Below are positions 9,280 to 63,975 of a DNA stretch of 64,000 nucleotides, in pieces (the first letter of the stretch is position 1; each line of letters opens with the position of its first letter). The position numbers and the translations under genes were made by a program. The notes beneath the pieces are model-generated. The model was not told where the DNA came from. It made no database searches and was given only the letters and a program-made list of their open reading frames with translations. This DNA comes from Elusimicrobiaceae bacterium (GTDB lineage Bacteria; Elusimicrobiota; Elusimicrobia; Elusimicrobiales; Elusimicrobiaceae), in contig JAFYXM010000004.1 in the NCBI GenBank assembly GCA_017546175.1, forward strand, positions 62,001 through 126,000. The letters are read 5' to 3'.

Positions 9280-9375
9280 ATTCTTTCGTCGGAGAAAAAG
9301 AATAGCATTGACAAATCGTTTTTTTTTTTTGCTACGATTTTTTTAGACGGAAAAATAAATAAAAAGGAGAGAAAA
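9280..9375 (+). promoter_or_regulatory. Pilin-cassette promoter 1 with 12-T spacer tract
   Basis: TTGACA at 9308-9313, spacer AATCG-T12-GC (19 bp), -10 TACGAT at 9333-9338, then a conserved leader TTTTTTTAGACGGAAAA and the Shine-Dalgarno AAGGAGAG. The same arrangement precedes the pilin genes at 18276 and 63460. An inverted repeat ATTCTTT / AAAGAAT (9280-9303) lies just upstream of the -35 box. Confidence 0.7.
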
Positions 9376-9864
9376 ATGAAAAGAGGTTTTACACTCATTG
9401 AGTTATTAGTTGTTGTTTTAATTATCGGCATTTTGTCAGCGGTGGCCTTGCCGCAGTACAGAATTGCTGTAGAAAAAACCAAGATTTCTGAAGCAAATAT
9501 TATTTTAAAATCTTTAACTGACGCTTGCACTCGATATTGTTTAGAAAATGCTTGTTCAGACGAAGGCGCCTATAACTGGGATAATATAGACATTGAGCTA
9601 AATGGTATGGCTGAAGCAGATGGTGGTGCGTGCAGACAAGGAAAGAATTTCTACTACTGTTTGGATACGCCAAATATAGAAATATGGGCAGGCCGTGGTT
9701 TAAGAGATAATGATTCGGACTATTATATTAATTACAGATTTAAAGAAGAATACAATCCCGGATCTTATATTCGCACTTGTTTTGCAGTAACTGATTGGGG
9801 GGCAAAGGTATGTTCTTCTGTGTGCGGAAAGAAAACTTTGACTGATAATGAGTGTGAGTTTTAG
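9376..9864 (+). CDS. Type IV pilin-like protein (copy 1), cysteine-rich
   Basis: This 162-residue prepilin has a very short leader, MKRG, with the prepilin peptidase site G^F, Glu5 of the mature protein (FTLIE) and the hydrophobic N-terminal helix ending in AVALPQY. The C-terminal part is unrelated to copies 2 and 3 and contains at least ten cysteines, which suggests a disulfide-stabilised exported subunit. The start is the ATG at 9376, preceded by AAGGAGAG. An upstream in-frame ATG at 9262 is rejected because it lies before the promoter. It could be a minor pilin, a pseudopilin or a pilus variant. The first 62 coding bases are identical to copy 2 at 18276. Confidence 0.88.
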   Translation: MKRGFTLIELLVVVLIIGILSAVALPQYRIAVEKTKISEANIILKSLTDACTRYCLENACSDEGAYNWDNIDIELNGMAEADGGACRQGKNFYYCLDTPNIEIWAGRGLRDNDSDYYINYRFKEEYNPGSYIRTCFAVTDWGAKVCSSVCGKKTLTDNECEF

Positions 9865-18187: not shown

Positions 18188-18275
18188 CCGTCGGTAAAAA
18201 ATAGTCTTGACAAGCCGTTTTTTTTTTTTGCTACAATTTTTTCAGACGGAAAATTGAAGCAAAAGGAGAATAAAA
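18188..18275 (+). promoter_or_regulatory. Pilin-cassette promoter 2 with 12-T spacer tract
   Basis: TTGACA at 18207-18212, spacer AGCCG-T12-GC (19 bp), -10 TACAAT at 18232-18237, leader TTTTTCAGACGGAAAA, Shine-Dalgarno AAAGGAG. Homology to cassette 1 also extends upstream of the -35 box (CGTCGG then A-rich then ATAG). Confidence 0.7.
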
Positions 18276-18734
18276 ATGAAAAGAGGTTTTACACTCATTG
18301 AGTTATTAGTTGTTGTTTTAATTATCGGCATTTTGTCTGCTGTGGCCTTGCCGCAATATACAAAGGCAGTCACTAAGGCACGCTTCGCTGAAGCTTTTAC
18401 AAACTTAAAGATAATTGCTGATGCGGTAAAAATTTGTGAATTAGAAACAGGTACAAATGTGTATTTTGTTTCAGGCTGTGATTTGATGGAAAACCTATCT
18501 GTTTCTGTTGAGAATGAAAAAAATTTTTACTATCATGCAGGTCCTGGAACAGGGACTAGTGAAACAGTTAAAGCCTGTGCTTCCTATCAAAAGTTTGATA
18601 CGTGTTTGTGTATTCATGAAGATGGGCATTTTTCAGGCTATGTTGGGGATGGGTGTGGTACATCAGAAGAAGCTCCTTTTGATATACTGAAAGTGTTGAA
18701 TTTGGAACAAGAGGATGGTTGTCGTTGTTGCTAA
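18276..18734 (+). CDS. Type IV pilin-like protein (copy 2), cysteine-rich
   Basis: This 152-residue prepilin has the short leader MKRG, cleavage before Phe, Glu5 and the standard hydrophobic helix. The first 62 coding bases are identical to copy 1, but the rest is different. The C-terminal region has many cysteines (CLC, GDGC and the terminal CRCC). It is presumably exported and assembled or displayed through a type II / type IV pilus-like machine whose genes are not in this window. Start chosen from AAAGGAG upstream. The gene stands alone between two terminators with its own promoter. Confidence 0.88.
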   Translation: MKRGFTLIELLVVVLIIGILSAVALPQYTKAVTKARFAEAFTNLKIIADAVKICELETGTNVYFVSGCDLMENLSVSVENEKNFYYHAGPGTGTSETVKACASYQKFDTCLCIHEDGHFSGYVGDGCGTSEEAPFDILKVLNLEQEDGCRCC

Positions 18735-20297: not shown

Positions 20298-22475
20298 CTA
20301 CATATCGCGCAGGTCATTTTCGCTGCGCCACGGGTACCAGTAGGTATCTTGCGCGTTTTGTTGAGTTTCTTTTCGTCCGTCTTTGCCGCATAACACAGAA
20401 ATGCGGAAAGCAAAAGACAAATTGTCATTTCGGTCTCGTACGGTTAACTCACCGATGGCATCATGGAAACGTTTGGTAAGGCGGATTAATTTATTAAAAG
20501 AGTCAAAAGATCCGCTTTGAATCTGAAAGTCCGTTCCCAAGTCTAAAGACCAAGTGGCATTCGGCAACCGTAAGCCAAAATTGGTAGTAAAGGTATAAGC
20601 ATCGGAAATATTTTTATACAGTGCATAGTCACTGCTTTCGGTAGTATCGTAGTTTGTTAAGCCGATGCCTAAATGCTGTCCTTTGATAATAAAATTGGTT
20701 TGCGCGATAAATGCTTGGTTCTTTTCTATTAAATCATATAAATTCTGCGCAAACAAGTTTATTTTTCCATCGGGGGAGTTGTATCCTGCTTCCAATAAAA
20801 TAGGCTCTACGCGGTGTTTAAGGTGTTGCCAAGAGTTGTTTTGAACGTCGTGATTTGCCAATCTAAAGCCGGTAGCCAAACGAACATAGGTATTAAAAGA
20901 CGGGCGATAATAATTTTCCAAATATAAGCGGTTTCTTTCTTCCCCGTGATCTAAAGAGAAAGTATCCGTTTTTAATGTACCAGTAGAGAGGCGTTTGGTG
21001 TATTGATAACCAAAATCTAATGTGCCGATGGGGGTATCTGTCTGTAAGTTCAAGTCCGTGCCCACACGCCCGACCCAAGCGGTTTTATCATTATAGTCAT
21101 CATCATCTAAAGAAACATGCTGATCATAAAAAACGCTGGGCAAAAAGGTAATCCCTTTTGCTAAACGAATAGATTTTTCGGTGGTCCAACGAGCAGAGCC
21201 TTGTTTTTTCCACTCTTCTTCCATATGAGAGGTATTATTAAAATTCACTTCCATGCGGTGCGTTAAACCCAGCAAAGGATCTTTGAAAGGAAGCAACGTG
21301 TAATCAAGCTGTGGCATATTTCGCTCTTTGGCAATAAAATCACCGCGTTGCCAATCAAAAATATCCATTTGCGTATAGCTTAAACGCAGCGTGGACCGGC
21401 GGCTTTGGCGGGAAAGAGAAAAATTGGTTTCCTGATCCGGAGTAAAAATATAAGGGTTTCCGCGGAAGAAAGAATCGTTAAAATATGGGTCTGATACCAT
21501 GCGGAACTGGGTCTGAAATTGATACAAAGCGCCTTTGTTATTATTAAAATGATCGGAGCTGTCATACATTTCCCACCAGTAACCGCCGCGCATACCCCAA
21601 CGTTTGGTGTCTTGGAGTTGGAAGGGGTGCCCGTCTAAGGTATATTCTTCGTCAGAGCTGGAGCGGTCATTGATATAATACACTTCGCCCGTACCGCGCA
21701 ACGTTTCGCTTTCTACCGCCATTAACTCAAGGCCCAAACCAACACCAGATTTGGTGTAATAGTCCAAATTCACTTTCGGGCGGAAACCGGCCACTTCTTG
21801 GAAAACGTTGGAAGTTAAAATGCCAAAGCCGGTGTCTCCGCTTTGCGTGAAATCTACGTGAGTGGTCCACGGTTTTTGACTGTCTAAAGAACGCCAAAAA
21901 ACAGGCAGCCACATAATGGGGAAACCATCTAATTTAAATACGGCATTGGTCCCAAAAACCCGTTTTTCCGGAGAAACTTTTAAATTTCCCAAGGTAATGG
22001 TATAGTGCGGTTCCGGATTGTCACAACAGGTCAGCACGGCTCCTTTTAGGCGTTCGGTACCGTCTTTCATGGAAATTTCTTTGGCGGAAATTACGCGCAG
22101 GGGGGGGTATTCGGTTTGAATATCTTCTGCATAAAAATCTTTGGTTTTATAATTGACCGATACATTGTTTCCGCTGACGGTAGCTCCCATTCCTTCCACG
22201 GTCATGGGACCGAGGGAGGAAATAGTGGTGTTGACTTGGTCAAAGGTAATGTCTTCGCCTTTGGCGGTGCGGATTTCCCCCGTTTGGGTTTGTTGGACCA
22301 AGGTGACATTTCCTTTTAGGTTAATCTTTTTGGCGGCAGGATCAGCCGAAGCTTCATCTGCGGTAAAATAAACAAACCCCTTCTCTTCGTCGGGTTGAGG
22401 CAGGACATTCTGTTCTGCCCACACAGGTAGAGAGAAAGAAACAAACAATACAAGGAGAAGGGGTAATTTTTTCAT
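20298..22475 (-). CDS. lptD: LPS-assembly protein LptD
   Basis: This 725-residue outer-membrane protein has a signal peptide (cleaved near VWA), an OstA/LptA-like beta-jellyroll (about 30-170, with GNVTLV and AKEISMKDGTERLKGA) and a large C-terminal LptD barrel. It inserts LPS into the outer leaflet. Cysteines at 150-151 (TCCDNP) and one near 696 could form the inter-domain disulfide known in E. coli LptD. Its ATG shares one base with the stop of the ROK kinase gene (TAATG). The presence of lpx genes elsewhere in the window supports the call. Confidence 0.9.
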   Translation of the reverse strand: MKKLPLLLVLFVSFSLPVWAEQNVLPQPDEEKGFVYFTADEASADPAAKKINLKGNVTLVQQTQTGEIRTAKGEDITFDQVNTTISSLGPMTVEGMGATVSGNNVSVNYKTKDFYAEDIQTEYPPLRVISAKEISMKDGTERLKGAVLTCCDNPEPHYTITLGNLKVSPEKRVFGTNAVFKLDGFPIMWLPVFWRSLDSQKPWTTHVDFTQSGDTGFGILTSNVFQEVAGFRPKVNLDYYTKSGVGLGLELMAVESETLRGTGEVYYINDRSSSDEEYTLDGHPFQLQDTKRWGMRGGYWWEMYDSSDHFNNNKGALYQFQTQFRMVSDPYFNDSFFRGNPYIFTPDQETNFSLSRQSRRSTLRLSYTQMDIFDWQRGDFIAKERNMPQLDYTLLPFKDPLLGLTHRMEVNFNNTSHMEEEWKKQGSARWTTEKSIRLAKGITFLPSVFYDQHVSLDDDDYNDKTAWVGRVGTDLNLQTDTPIGTLDFGYQYTKRLSTGTLKTDTFSLDHGEERNRLYLENYYRPSFNTYVRLATGFRLANHDVQNNSWQHLKHRVEPILLEAGYNSPDGKINLFAQNLYDLIEKNQAFIAQTNFIIKGQHLGIGLTNYDTTESSDYALYKNISDAYTFTTNFGLRLPNATWSLDLGTDFQIQSGSFDSFNKLIRLTKRFHDAIGELTVRDRNDNLSFAFRISVLCGKDGRKETQQNAQDTYWYPWRSENDLRDM

Positions 22476-30412: not shown

Positions 30413-30829
30413 CTATTGTAATTTTTCTTTGCTTATACGCATAATAACGGTACAACCGCCGTCTTCTAAGTATTCGGTAGATACCAACTCCATGTGATTT
30501 AACACACCGCTGGCGGAGCTGTGAATGGTAGACCCTTCAGAGACGGCGTCCACAATTTGCACGTTACTTTCCAAGTTTGCTCCATAAATTACTTCGGTAG
30601 CTCTTTGGTAGGCATGTGCAATAGCTGCTTCTCTGGATAAGATTCTGCGTTGAGAATCGGTTTGGTGATTGGGATTAGCTGCACCAAAACCGCGAACCCA
30701 AAGATAGTGATCGTCTACTAACGTATCATTAAAAGCAGGAGCTATCACCCCGTCTTTGACGGCACTGTTTAAACCGCCGCAAGCCGATAAACAGAAAAGA
30801 CCCAACAACAAAAGAGCCAGTTTTTTCAT
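30413..30829 (-). CDS. Small LPP20-like lipoprotein
   Basis: This 138-residue protein has a lipoprotein signal with lipobox LSAC, then a region (about 50-138) resembling the LPP20 lipoprotein domain: a helix (REAAIAHAYQRATEVIYGA) followed by beta strands ending in CTVIMRISKEKL. Its function is unknown. Its start overlaps the stop of the large DnaA-like gene by 4 bp (ATGA), so it is translationally coupled to it, and the FlgT-like lipoprotein follows closely. Confidence 0.6.
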   Translation of the reverse strand: MKKLALLLLGLFCLSACGGLNSAVKDGVIAPAFNDTLVDDHYLWVRGFGAANPNHQTDSQRRILSREAAIAHAYQRATEVIYGANLESNVQIVDAVSEGSTIHSSASGVLNHMELVSTEYLEDGGCTVIMRISKEKLQ

Positions 30830-33800
30830 CTTAATAACTCCGATAAAATTTTAACATACGTGCTGGGGGCGTTTACTTTTTCGTAATTGATGACGCCGCA
30901 GCGAATGAGCATGATTTCTAACATATGCGTTAAAATATCATAAAAGTTTTCCCGGACGGAAGATTCACAAACATCTAATTCCGGCCCCAAAATGACCGCG
31001 CCTTTTAACTTTTTATTATCGCAAAGGTTGGCAATTTTAAAAGCGGAAGAAATAATGTTATCCGTGGAATAAGATGATCTTACCGCCAATTCCGGTCCTC
31101 CCGGAATGCCCAACTCTTTAGCACGCTGTTGCAGAGCAAACAGCAGCCAATTCATCATATTGGAATTGTTTTGCGGATAGAAGAAGCCGATTTTGCCCCA
31201 TTCACCGTTTCCGGTAACGGGCGAATTGCCTACTTCAGAAATTTCCCGAATAGCCACTTGGCTGGAGCGATCTTCTCCGGTGGTGGCTAACAATTGTTCA
31301 AATATATCTTTGGAAGAGCGTTGTTGGGGGGGGAGTTGCGGGAAAATAAGTCTTTCCAGTACCCGTACCCGACGAATAGCCCGATTGACCGTACCCAAAG
31401 ACATATTAGGTTTGCCAAAGAAGCGGTTGGCCTCTTCATCCGTGATGCTGATGTTATTGGCCAGTAACATTCTTTGGATAATTTGCGTACGGGTTTTTCC
31501 GGCGGCATCTTTTAACTCAGAGATCCAACCGGAATCTAATTTGAAATCTAACAATTCTTCCAACTTGGCCAAACTTTCCGGCGGATATTTGGAAGTAAGG
31601 ACAATTTGTTTGTGTTGAGCTCTAAAATCTTTGAGCAATTTGGATAAATGGGCACGATTTTGCTCATTGACGGCGATTAAGTGTATATCGTCAATTAAAA
31701 TGGCTTGGGCATTATTGGTAAATTCTTCAAATTTTTTAATATTGCCTTCCATTACGTAGCGTTGAATGCCGCGGGATAAACGTACACCGTTAGTGATAAA
31801 GATATTTTCTTGCCCGAATTTTTTAGATAAGGCATAACCGATGGCATGCAAGAAATGCGTTTTACCCGTACCGCTAGCTCCGTGCAACACAAGCGGATTG
31901 TAAAGTCTTCCGGGATTGTCAATAACAGAAATAGCAGTAGCATGGGCAAAGCGGTTGACCGATATCGTCATGTTTTCCAACGTATAGGTAGGAATCAAAG
32001 GTACTTCCAACGGCCAATTGTGCTTTTTGAGTTCCGAAAGAGGCAACTCAATGGAATGGTCAATGGTTCTTGTTTTTTCCAAAATAGTGTGGGCACTGGG
32101 GCGCCGTCTGCGCAAAATAGTATGATGCTTTTCCTCTTGCGGTTTTTCAATTTCCGGAACCGGTGTTTGAGCAACAGGCTCTGTAGCAACAGGCTGGACC
32201 GGTTGAGGTACGGGAGGTACAGGGGCAGCAGCCGTCGGAGCATTAGGCGCAGCAGGTGCAGCAGGTGCGGGCGGAACCGGCGGCAAAGGTGCGACAGGAG
32301 CAGCCGGAGCGACCGGTTCCTGTGCTTTGCGTTTGATGCGTAAAATTGGTTTTTTATCCCCTGTGTTTTCAGACATAATATTTTTCTCCATAATAGGTGC
32401 TGCCGGAGGCGGAATAACCCTGTCTTCCCGCTCCGTTGAGCCGGATAATTCTTTCGGCTGCGGCAAAGGTTCCTCTGCTTTGGAGATGTTTTCTTCCTCT
32501 ACGGGAACCGTGTTTTCCTCCATATTTTTAACGGGAGGAAGCGGCGCTTGCTGCGGTGCAATCTCATCAATTGCCGGTGCAGCGGGTGCCTGTTGTGCTT
32601 CTTGAGTAGGCGTTAAATTTTCCGCTGTATTTTCTTTCTTGGCAGCGGAGGCAAGTAACTGTTCAAAAGGGTCTAATACTTCTTCTTGATCTTCTTTTTG
32701 TTGTTCAAATCGACTAAAGGGTATAGATACGGCCAGGGTCGATTTCTTGGCAGAAGGCTTTGACGGTTGTGTTTGTGGAGTTGTATCCGAAGAAGAAACC
32801 GCTACTTCAGCATGCTCTACAAAGCCCATGTCTTTTTGGGTAATACGTTCTGTGATTTGTTTTACATCATCAAAATCTACAAAACAGGTTTGGTCTTTGA
32901 TTTGTTGGTCAAAAATATTAAAGCCTTCATTTTCTGTATTTTTTTCTTCTGACAAATCGTCGGCAGATAAAGTTTGTTGCTGTAAAGAAAGCTCTTCCTG
33001 TTTTTTCTGCTCTTCTTGTTTGGCTTGGGCTGTTTCTTGGTTGTTTTGCGGAGCCAATTTTTCCAAATCTAAGAACATATCGTATTTGGTTTCTGCAGAA
33101 AAAATATCTTCCAAAGATTGATCTAATAAGGTCCCTTCCATGTCTTTGTTAAGCATGTCTTTGTCGGTCAAAGGAAGGGGATCTTCTTGCGTGTCGGAGC
33201 TTTCGTTTTTCTCTTGTGCCACTTCGGCGTCAGATAAAACGGGCTCAGATTCTTTTAAAACAGGGTCAGCTTCTTTTAAAATAGGAGCAGGGGCCTCTGG
33301 GGAAAGAGTTTTGCCCAAGGTAATGGTTTTGACGTGAGGCAAATCTTCCGCAAATCCGGCAGCGTCATTTTGCGCGTTGGCATCTTCTTCTGCAGAAGGA
33401 ACATCATTTAAAGAGGAATCTTCCGTCATTTCCGGTAAAGGCCGTATTCCGTCTAATGTATTGGCCGGCGCCTCAACAGAGGCGGAAATATCTTCAACGG
33501 AATCTAAATTGATTTGTCTGTGCTGTAATTCTTCTACTTCCGGTAAAGAAATGTTAGAAGAAGATATTTCTTCAACACTGGGGGCTTGGAAAAAACTGGC
33601 AGAAGGGTCTAAAGTGAGAAAAGTGGGAAAGTCTTTATCTTCTTTAGATACATCGTCATTAAACAAGGCATTGCCAAATCCGCCGCCCGGCACAAATTCA
33701 TTTACCTTTTTTGCCTGTTCAATGCCTTCTCGCACGGCGGTACGTATTTTTTCCACGGTATCTTCGTCCAAATCGTCCGGCAACGGAAAACGATACACAT

Positions 33801-33954
33801 ACGGAGCCAAAGCCGGCTGCGGAGATTGAACGTATCCTTGCAGCTTTTTGGCAATCAAGCGTGCATCATGCTCCGTTCCATCAATCAGTAAAGAATAAGT
33901 GATGGAATTGCTTTTCGGACTGATATTGGAGATGATATCCCACTGAGTAATCAT
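30826..33954 (-). CDS. Large DnaA-like AAA+ ATPase with long disordered N-terminal region
   Basis: This 1042-residue protein has four parts. Residues 1-100 form a small folded domain I cannot name. Residues about 100-640 are low-complexity, acidic, then proline/alanine-rich ([13 protein letters not shown]). Residues about 645-870 are an AAA+ domain of DnaA type with Walker [10 protein letters not shown] (about 690), Walker B ILIDDIHL (about 753) and TSKYPPESL. Residues about 900-1042 are an unrecognised domain with [20 protein letters not shown]. The DnaA domain IV DNA-binding helix-turn-helix is absent, so it is not the replication initiator. It is coupled to deoC upstream and an LPP20-like lipoprotein downstream (4-bp overlaps). 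Membrane segments are not seen. Confidence 0.7.
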
Positions 33955-63369: not shown

Positions 63370-63459
63370 TTTTCCCATAGAGGGAAAAGAAAAGATTTGA
63401 CAAACCGTTTTTTTGCTACAATTTTTTTAGATGGAAAACTAGAAAAAAGGAGAATAAAA
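63370..63459 (+). promoter_or_regulatory. Pilin-cassette promoter 3 with 7-T spacer tract
   Basis: TTGACA at 63397-63402, spacer AACCG-T7-GC (14 bp), -10 TACAAT at 63417-63422, leader TTTTTTAGATGGAAAA, Shine-Dalgarno AAGGAG. A 14-bp spacer is far below the 17-bp optimum. A palindrome TTTTCCC-ATAGA-GGGAAAA (63370-63388) lies upstream of the -35 box. Confidence 0.7.
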
Positions 63460-63975
63460 ATGAAGAAAGGTTTTACATTGATAGAACTATTAGTGGTTGT
63501 CTTGATTATCGGTATTTTGTCTGCGGTAGCTTTGCCTAATTATCAAAAAGCGGTATTGAAAGCAAAAATCCAAAGCTTGATGCCTGTTGTAAAAGCTGTG
63601 GCCGATGCGGAAGAAATATATTATTTGTCCAATGGATCTTATACAAAGGACTTGGAAAATTTAGATATAGATCTTCCGAATGCTTCTTATGTGAGGGGAC
63701 ATACAGACTGGAGTGAATATTCTTTCGGCAGTGACGGAAAAGCAACCATATTAATAAATCTACCTACCAATGATGTTTCTCTTGTATATGAAGTGCCAGG
63801 TAATGGAACTACTCATGATTTGGAATTGCGCATAGCATTTCAAAATGGGAATCATTATGCCTTAGGAAAAGGGCAGTGGGCCTGCCGAGACCAAAGCATT
63901 GCCGCGATGACACAAGTGTGTAAAAATTTGGGTTATACGGTAAGAAAATCGTATGATTTTATGGTACAACCGTAG
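63460..63975 (+). CDS. Type IV pilin-like protein (copy 3)
   Basis: This 171-residue prepilin has the leader MKKG, cleavage before Phe, Glu5 and the hydrophobic helix ending AVALPNY. A central beta-rich region (SLVYEVPGNGTTHDLELRIA) resembles PilE-type minor pilins. It has only two cysteines (WACRDQ and VCKNLG) near the C-terminus, so it forms the usual disulfide loop and is less unusual than copies 1 and 2. Its N-terminal coding sequence has diverged from theirs at synonymous sites. Start ATG 63460 follows AAGGAG. Confidence 0.9.
   Translation: MKKGFTLIELLVVVLIIGILSAVALPNYQKAVLKAKIQSLMPVVKAVADAEEIYYLSNGSYTKDLENLDIDLPNASYVRGHTDWSEYSFGSDGKATILINLPTNDVSLVYEVPGNGTTHDLELRIAFQNGNHYALGKGQWACRDQSIAAMTQVCKNLGYTVRKSYDFMVQP

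What the first reader, a model, noticed from the sequence alone, without database searches (positions are those of the whole stretch)
9308..9338. Pilin genes driven by a shared promoter with a slippage-prone poly-T spacer
Three dispersed pilin-like genes (9376, 18276, 63460) share one cassette: TTGACA, a 5-base block (A/G-A/G-T/C-C-G type), a pure T tract, GC, TAC(A/G)AT, a conserved leader ending GACGGAAAA or GATGGAAAA, and a strong Shine-Dalgarno sequence. T tracts are 12, 12 and 7, giving -35/-10 spacers of 19, 19 and 14 bp. Homopolymers between promoter boxes are a known phase-variation device (for example porA in Neisseria and fim genes in Bordetella). Tract lengths straddling the 17-bp optimum suggest that each pilin gene is switched by T-tract slippage. 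I know of no description of this in this lineage.
Basis: partly seen in the sequence, partly recalled or inferred. Interest (0 to 1): 0.8.

Follow-up and report, generated by a model that had tools for sequence, protein, structure and literature searches.

The report
Fixed T12-spacer promoter of pilin genes
A group of gut bacteria (Elusimicrobiota) with dozens to hundreds of pilin genes scattered over very small genomes drives most of them, in this genome and its closest sampled relative, from one unusual promoter built around a run of about twelve T's; the run looks like a fixed working part of the promoter rather than the length-changing on/off switch first proposed.

Summary
All three prepilin genes of the window have TTGACA-N5-T(12,12,7)-GC-TAC(A/G)AT (spacers 19, 19, 14), with no match in shuffles. 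It is far larger than the window. The genome has about 65-75 prepilin genes. At least 41 carry this type of promoter, and all 18 strict genome matches lie just upstream of a prepilin. It is essentially confined to the gut genus Avelusimicrobium (51 of 66 genomes; 2 of 275 other Elusimicrobiota genomes with a T>=11 form).

The interpretation, slippage switching of each pilin, is not borne out. Across eight relatives about 83% of 299 sites have exactly a 16-bp spacer, and T11 goes with an extra base before the tract. At one slot chosen by its neighbouring gene, six species all have T12, while three close relatives have impure T-rich spacers of 17-18 bp. These facts fit a length- and purity-constrained promoter element. 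This genome is atypical (modes 16 and 19, T7-T14), and no read or strain data were available, so occasional switching is not excluded.

Also seen: chromosomal slots are conserved between two species, but 13 of 19 carry unrelated pilins. New variant of a known kind.

The parts
9308..9338 (+). promoter 1: -35 TTGACA 9308-9313, AATCG 9314-9318, T12 9319-9330, GC 9331-9332, -10 TACGAT 9333-9338 (TGC forms an extended -10); spacer 19
9339..9375 (+). short leader of pilin 1 with GACGGAAAA (9346-9354) and Shine-Dalgarno AAGGAG (9364-9369)
9376..9864 (+). prepilin 1 (162 aa, MKRGFTLIELLVVVLIIGILSAVALPQY)
   Evidence: PF07963 31.7 bits against cut-off 21.2
18207..18237 (+). promoter 2: TTGACA-AGCCG-T12 (18218-18229)-GC-TACAAT; spacer 19
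18238..18275 (+). short leader of pilin 2 with CAGACGGAAAA and AAGGAG
18276..18734 (+). prepilin 2 (152 aa); ortholog in the same slot of G019 (83% in the C-terminal part)
63397..63422 (+). promoter 3: TTGACA-AACCG-T7 (63408-63414)-GC-TACAAT; spacer 14
63423..63459 (+). short leader of pilin 3 with GATGGAAAA and AAGGAG
63460..63975 (+). prepilin 3 (171 aa); the same slot in G019 holds an unrelated pilin with T12

Best explanation
The cassette is a sigma70-type promoter with an extended -10, dedicated mainly to a very large, fast-changing prepilin family of Avelusimicrobium. A pure T tract of about 12 forms most of the spacer and acts as an integral, sequence- and length-constrained promoter element. 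It sets the distance and phase of -35 and -10 (16 bp in most species) and gives the spacer the stiff, narrow-groove shape of an A-tract, perhaps read by RNA polymerase or an unknown regulator. This puts dozens of scattered, exchangeable pilin genes under one control. Shown: shared sequence, pilin association, conserved length and purity, genus restriction. Inferred: promoter activity, the structural role of the tract, co-regulation. Deviating lengths (7-11, 13, 14) are most simply weaker or stronger variants left by occasional slippage.
For: All 18 strict matches in the genome precede a prepilin. T-tract promoters precede 41 of 65 parsed prepilins in G000 and 77 of 93 in G019. Spacer 16 at 61 of 77 G019 sites, 48/57 in G026, 36/44 in G038, 59/71 listed in G004, 14/14 in G013, 12/12 listed in G029 (hand counts). 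TTGACATCG-T11 and TTGACTTG-T12 keep the same total. Six orthologous slots all T12; three relatives impure with spacers 17, 17, 18. No interior substitution in G019 T12 tracts, while mismatches do occur in -35 and -10; leaders of such promoters are 68% and upstream DNA 50% identical. Long A/T runs are otherwise rarer than expected in the window.
Against: In this genome the lengths are broader (T7-T14) and the commonest spacer is 19, not 16; a purely spacing-constrained tract should be T9 there. About a sixth of sites in relatives deviate, mostly by 1-2 bases, as slippage would produce. No transcription start is mapped and no regulator identified. Uniformity could partly reflect copying between paralogs. 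A few T-tract promoters precede non-pilin secreted proteins.
Confidence: 0.6

Rival explanations
1. The T tract is a contingency locus: slipped-strand mispairing changes the -35/-10 distance and switches each pilin gene on, off or between levels, giving combinatorial pilus composition.
For: Pure runs of 11-14 T are in the slippage-prone range; lengths 7-14 among paralogs in G000; about a sixth of sites in relatives deviate, mostly by 1-2. Known precedent for T-tract control of surface proteins (sabA, PMC4081817; Spy1336/R28, PMC7098570).
Against: Length nearly fixed among paralogs and orthologs; compensation keeps the spacer at 16; close orthologs lack a pure tract. By contrast sabA ranges T5-T22 among 51 strains.
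Confidence: 0.2
2. The cassette is uniform because promoter, leader and first codons are copied between paralogs by recombination; the identical 5' module is mainly a recombination anchor for exchanging pilins between fixed chromosomal slots.
For: 13 of 19 two-sided slots carry unrelated pilins with mean flank identity 83%; orthologous pilins may carry a different promoter/leader class in the two species; the N-terminal coding part is near identical in many copies.
Against: Leaders are 68% and upstream regions 50% identical while tract, -35 and -10 stay near 100%, so homogenisation would have to stop at the promoter boxes. T11 plus one extra base is not a copy of T12.
Confidence: 0.15
3. The lengths in this genome are partly consensus or assembly errors in homopolymers and mean nothing biologically.
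For: G000 has a broader length distribution than relatives; read type unknown; one relative has an N gap exactly over the tract (G001); contigs of G019 end at these cassettes.
Against: The same T12 is found in many independent assemblies.
Confidence: 0.05

Closest known systems
Helicobacter pylori sabA promoter T-tract (PMC4081817)
   Same: poly-T in the promoter of a surface adhesin; the tract acts through DNA geometry and RNA polymerase binding
   Different: the sabA tract lies adjacent to the -35 element, outside the spacer, and varies T5-T22 between strains; here it is inside the -35/-10 spacer, mostly one length, and shared by dozens of paralogs
Streptococcus pyogenes Spy1336/R28 T-tract (PMC7098570)
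   Same: T homopolymer (8-13 T) in the intergenic regulatory region of a surface-protein gene; one base changes transcript level
   Different: one divergent gene pair, polymorphic between isolates; here a genus-wide pilin family with mostly fixed length
Phase-variable spacer promoters: Bordetella fim, Neisseria porA, Mycoplasma hyorhinis vlp (from memory, not read here)
   Same: homopolymer between or near -35 and -10 of surface-protein genes; vlp has one tract per paralog
   Different: those tracts are demonstrated switches; here orthologous length is conserved and switching is not shown
Extended -10 sigma70 promoters
   Same: TTGAC(A/T) and TGNTAnnnT boxes, 16-bp spacer in most relatives
   Different: nearly the whole spacer is a pure T12; the 19-bp class of this genome is outside the usual range

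Membership tests
Type IV prepilins | N-terminal methylation motif and hydrophobic stretch (PF07963) | tested here: met
   three window proteins at 31.7-31.9 bits against cut-off 21.2; 75 hits in the genome
Simple-sequence contingency (phase-variable) promoter | long pure homopolymer in the promoter | tested here: met
   T12, T12, T7
Simple-sequence contingency (phase-variable) promoter | tract length varies at the same locus between close relatives or isolates | tested here: not met
   Six orthologous xth slots all T12. G000/G019 slots with tracts in both: difference 0 in 9, 1 in 7, 2 or more in 3 of 19, most of them with replaced cassettes. Tested between species only; isolates of one species were not available.
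Simple-sequence contingency (phase-variable) promoter | mixed lengths within a population | not testable with these tools
   no reads
Simple-sequence contingency (phase-variable) promoter | transcription changes with tract length | not testable with these tools
   no expression data
Sigma70 extended -10 promoter | TTGACA-like -35, TGNTAnnnT, spacer 16-18 | tested here: inconclusive
   boxes present; spacer 16 at most sites in relatives but 19, 19, 14 in the window; transcription starts not mapped
Sigma54 promoter (known for some pilins) | GG-N10-GC at -24/-12 | tested here: not met
   no GG 10 bases before the GC in the cassettes; the tract occupies it. Sigma54 is reported absent from Elusimicrobium minutum (PMC3162934).

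The most novel reading that the evidence does not exclude
A distributed phase-variation array: 40-80 or more pilin genes per cell, each with its own T-tract spacer, mostly parked at the on-length and slipping off at low rate, together with slot-wise replacement of pilins, so that a minimal gut bacterium displays a combinatorial pilus surface.
Probability: 0.15. Interest if true: 0.8.

Novelty: new variant of a known kind. Interest (0 to 1): 0.5.

Why it matters
It points to a genus-wide pilin regulon in a poorly known gut phylum, with genomes of about 1-1.8 Mb carrying 22 to more than 100 prepilins. It also offers a natural series of promoters in which T length, purity and spacer length vary independently, so the role of a rigid spacer in bacterial promoters can be tested. 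The conserved slots with replaced pilins suggest strong pressure on pilus diversity in the gut.

Tried and rejected
Rfam search of the leaders: no family. RNA structure of the 73-nt leader: RNAalifold finds no consensus structure; a hand-set 8-bp stem is paired in 79% of cells against 77% in shuffles; inconclusive. A leader peptide LxSDPxLKxxLLGLKAV in those leaders: open frames no more frequent than in column shuffles. Looking for the AAATCG class in other named genomes: none. Viral contigs: none. Contrast in pilin turnover between T-tract and other pilins: 13/19 against 4/11 replaced, not significant (p = 0.13). One search used a pattern one T too short (spacer 15) and was repeated correctly. 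No held paper found describes Elusimicrobiota pilin promoters or pilin numbers; the E. minutum genome paper is not held, so prior notice of the pilin expansion cannot be excluded.

Full report
Observation. The window holds three prepilin genes, at 9376, 18276 and 63460 (PF07963 above cut-off). They are the only ones in the window. Each follows TTGACA-N5-Tn-GC-TAC(A/G)AT with n = 12, 12 and 7 and spacers of 19, 19 and 14. The pattern never occurs in 100 dinucleotide shuffles. The two T12 runs are the only A/T runs of 10 or more in the 64 kb; about 4.9 would be expected, and runs of 7 or more are also rarer than expected (47 against 85). Long A/T runs are thus depleted in general and kept here.

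Scale. The window is C1:62001-126000 of a 1.34-Mb genome. PF07963 finds 75 matches in it. The strict cassette occurs 18 times, and every copy lies directly upstream of one of those genes; the reversed-pattern control gives 0. A second pattern, T9-GNTACAAT, gives 23 matches, by inspection also all upstream of prepilins. Of 65 prepilins parsed with upstream DNA, 41 have a T-tract promoter: T12 in 25, T13 in 7, the rest 7-14. Spacers are 16 in 9 and 19 in 12. The sequence between TTGACA/T and the tract falls into a 5-base class (AATCG type, spacer mostly 19) and a 1-3-base class (GG, GA; mostly 15-17).

Taxon and distribution. One genus member is Candidatus Avelusimicrobium excrementipullorum: DWVB01000014.1 of 29,253 bases equals G006:C61 by length and site position. 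Another is UBA1436: DCTQ01000095.1 of 17,239 bases equals G001:C15. Looser T8+ forms occur in 51 of 66 genus genomes. A T>=11 form occurs in 47 of 66, and in only 2 of 275 other Elusimicrobiota genomes. It is therefore a genus trait.

Length constraint. In G019, the closest sampled relative with many copies, 77 of 93 parsed prepilins have the promoter, and 61 of 77 have a 16-bp spacer (15 in 10, 17 in 5, 14 in 1). Hand counts of the listed matches give spacer 16 in 48/57 (G026), 36/44 (G038), 59/71 (G004), 14/14 (G013), 12/12 (G029), 10/16 (G021) and 7/8 (G012). With G019 this is 247 of 299. G004 and G029 have three bases before the tract and T11; most others have two bases and T12. The total is kept, not the T number. 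One G019 copy (TTGACACGA-T11) shows the same compensation. G000 departs from this rule: its 5-base class also has T12, giving 19.

Purity. With up to three mismatches allowed at the 16-bp spacing, G019 gives 69 sites, 60 of them perfect. The mismatches lie in -35, -10 or at the tract edge, and none lies inside the run, apart from one three-mismatch hit that is probably unrelated. Among 39 G019 long-leader promoters chosen for T12 and spacer 16, mean pairwise identity is 50% upstream, 94% in -35, 100% in -10 and 68% in the leader.

Orthologous test. To avoid choosing by the promoter, the gene next to one pilin slot (exodeoxyribonuclease III, xth) was searched in the genus. Among genomes with a prepilin directly downstream and a readable promoter, G051, G008, G059, G063, G013 and G010 all have TTGACTCG-T12-GATACA. 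G061, G007 and G047 have T-rich but broken spacers of 17, 17 and 18 bp. G001 has an N gap over the tract. G007 and G061 are 97% identical around the locus; their spacers differ by substitutions, not by length. The tract length is therefore conserved where it exists, and the pure tract is dispensable where it does not. This is not the pattern of a contingency locus such as sabA, with T5-T22 among 51 strains (PMC4081817).

Slots. Comparing flanks, 19 T-tract pilin slots of G000 have both flanks in G019 at a mean 83% nucleotide identity. In 13 the C-terminal pilin part is unrelated (36% identity or less), and in 6 it is orthologous (57-98%). Orthologous pilins often carry different promoter and leader classes. 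Pilins and their 5' modules are exchanged at fixed chromosomal sites. The window's third pilin (T7) sits in a slot where G019 has an unrelated pilin with T12.

Mechanism. What is shown: a shared, pilin-associated, genus-specific promoter-like sequence whose T tract is as conserved as its -35 and -10 boxes in relatives. What is inferred: it is a sigma70 extended -10 promoter; the tract is a structural part of the spacer; the pilins are co-regulated. Slippage surely occurs at some rate and may explain the deviating lengths, but switching as the purpose of the tract is not supported. The main gap is the absence of reads and of several strains of one species; G000's wider spread could be biological or a consensus artefact.

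Novelty. Promoter homopolymers at surface genes are known. A mostly fixed T12 spacer shared by dozens of pilin paralogs across a genus was not found in the papers searched. It is therefore reported as a new variant of a known kind, with moderate interest.

Noticed in passing
L052, L054, L058 (G000); L150, L151, L157, L161 (other species): Another conserved prepilin leader: (A)CTACGGCTGTT...AGCAGCCGTTTTT, a hairpin followed by T's like an attenuator or terminator upstream of the start codon; no Rfam match.
   Followed up: partly
L171, L173, L179, L197 (G026); L176, L180, L196, L200 (G038): Palindromic repeat-like inserts between -10 and Shine-Dalgarno of T-tract pilins (CTGGATCCCGG...CCGGGATGACG; GTCATCCTGAG...), different in the two species.
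   Followed up: no
73-nt leaders in G019 and G000: Leaders of constant length with a recurring possible peptide LxSDPxLKxxLLGLKAV ending at the Shine-Dalgarno; not above column-shuffle expectation.
   Followed up: partly
L201 (G001), L202 (G002), L285 (G019): T-tract promoter in front of non-pilin secreted or lipoprotein-like genes.
   Followed up: no
G026 and G038 prepilins (L171-L200): Many prepilins there have AFTLIELL, alanine instead of glycine before the cleavage site.
   Followed up: no
window about 9285-9300 and 9346-9354; also L063: Class-1 promoters are flanked by an inverted pair (T)CCGTC(GG)...GACGGAAAA about 60 bp apart, possibly an operator or part of the module.
   Followed up: no
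window 22100-22107 and 31326-31333: Two G8 runs inside long minus-strand reading frames (20298-22475 and 30826-33954), the longest G runs in the window and possible coding contingency tracts.
   Followed up: no
G000:C4 and C8 contig ends (L031, L032): Two prepilin copies at contig ends share an identical 105-base upstream region and a TTGACTA-T12 promoter with spacer 15, as do their orthologs in G019.
   Followed up: partly
chromosomal pilin slots, G000 against G019: Conserved neighbours but unrelated pilins in 13 of 19 slots; one pilin family (L055/L264) sits in different slots in the two species.
   Followed up: partly
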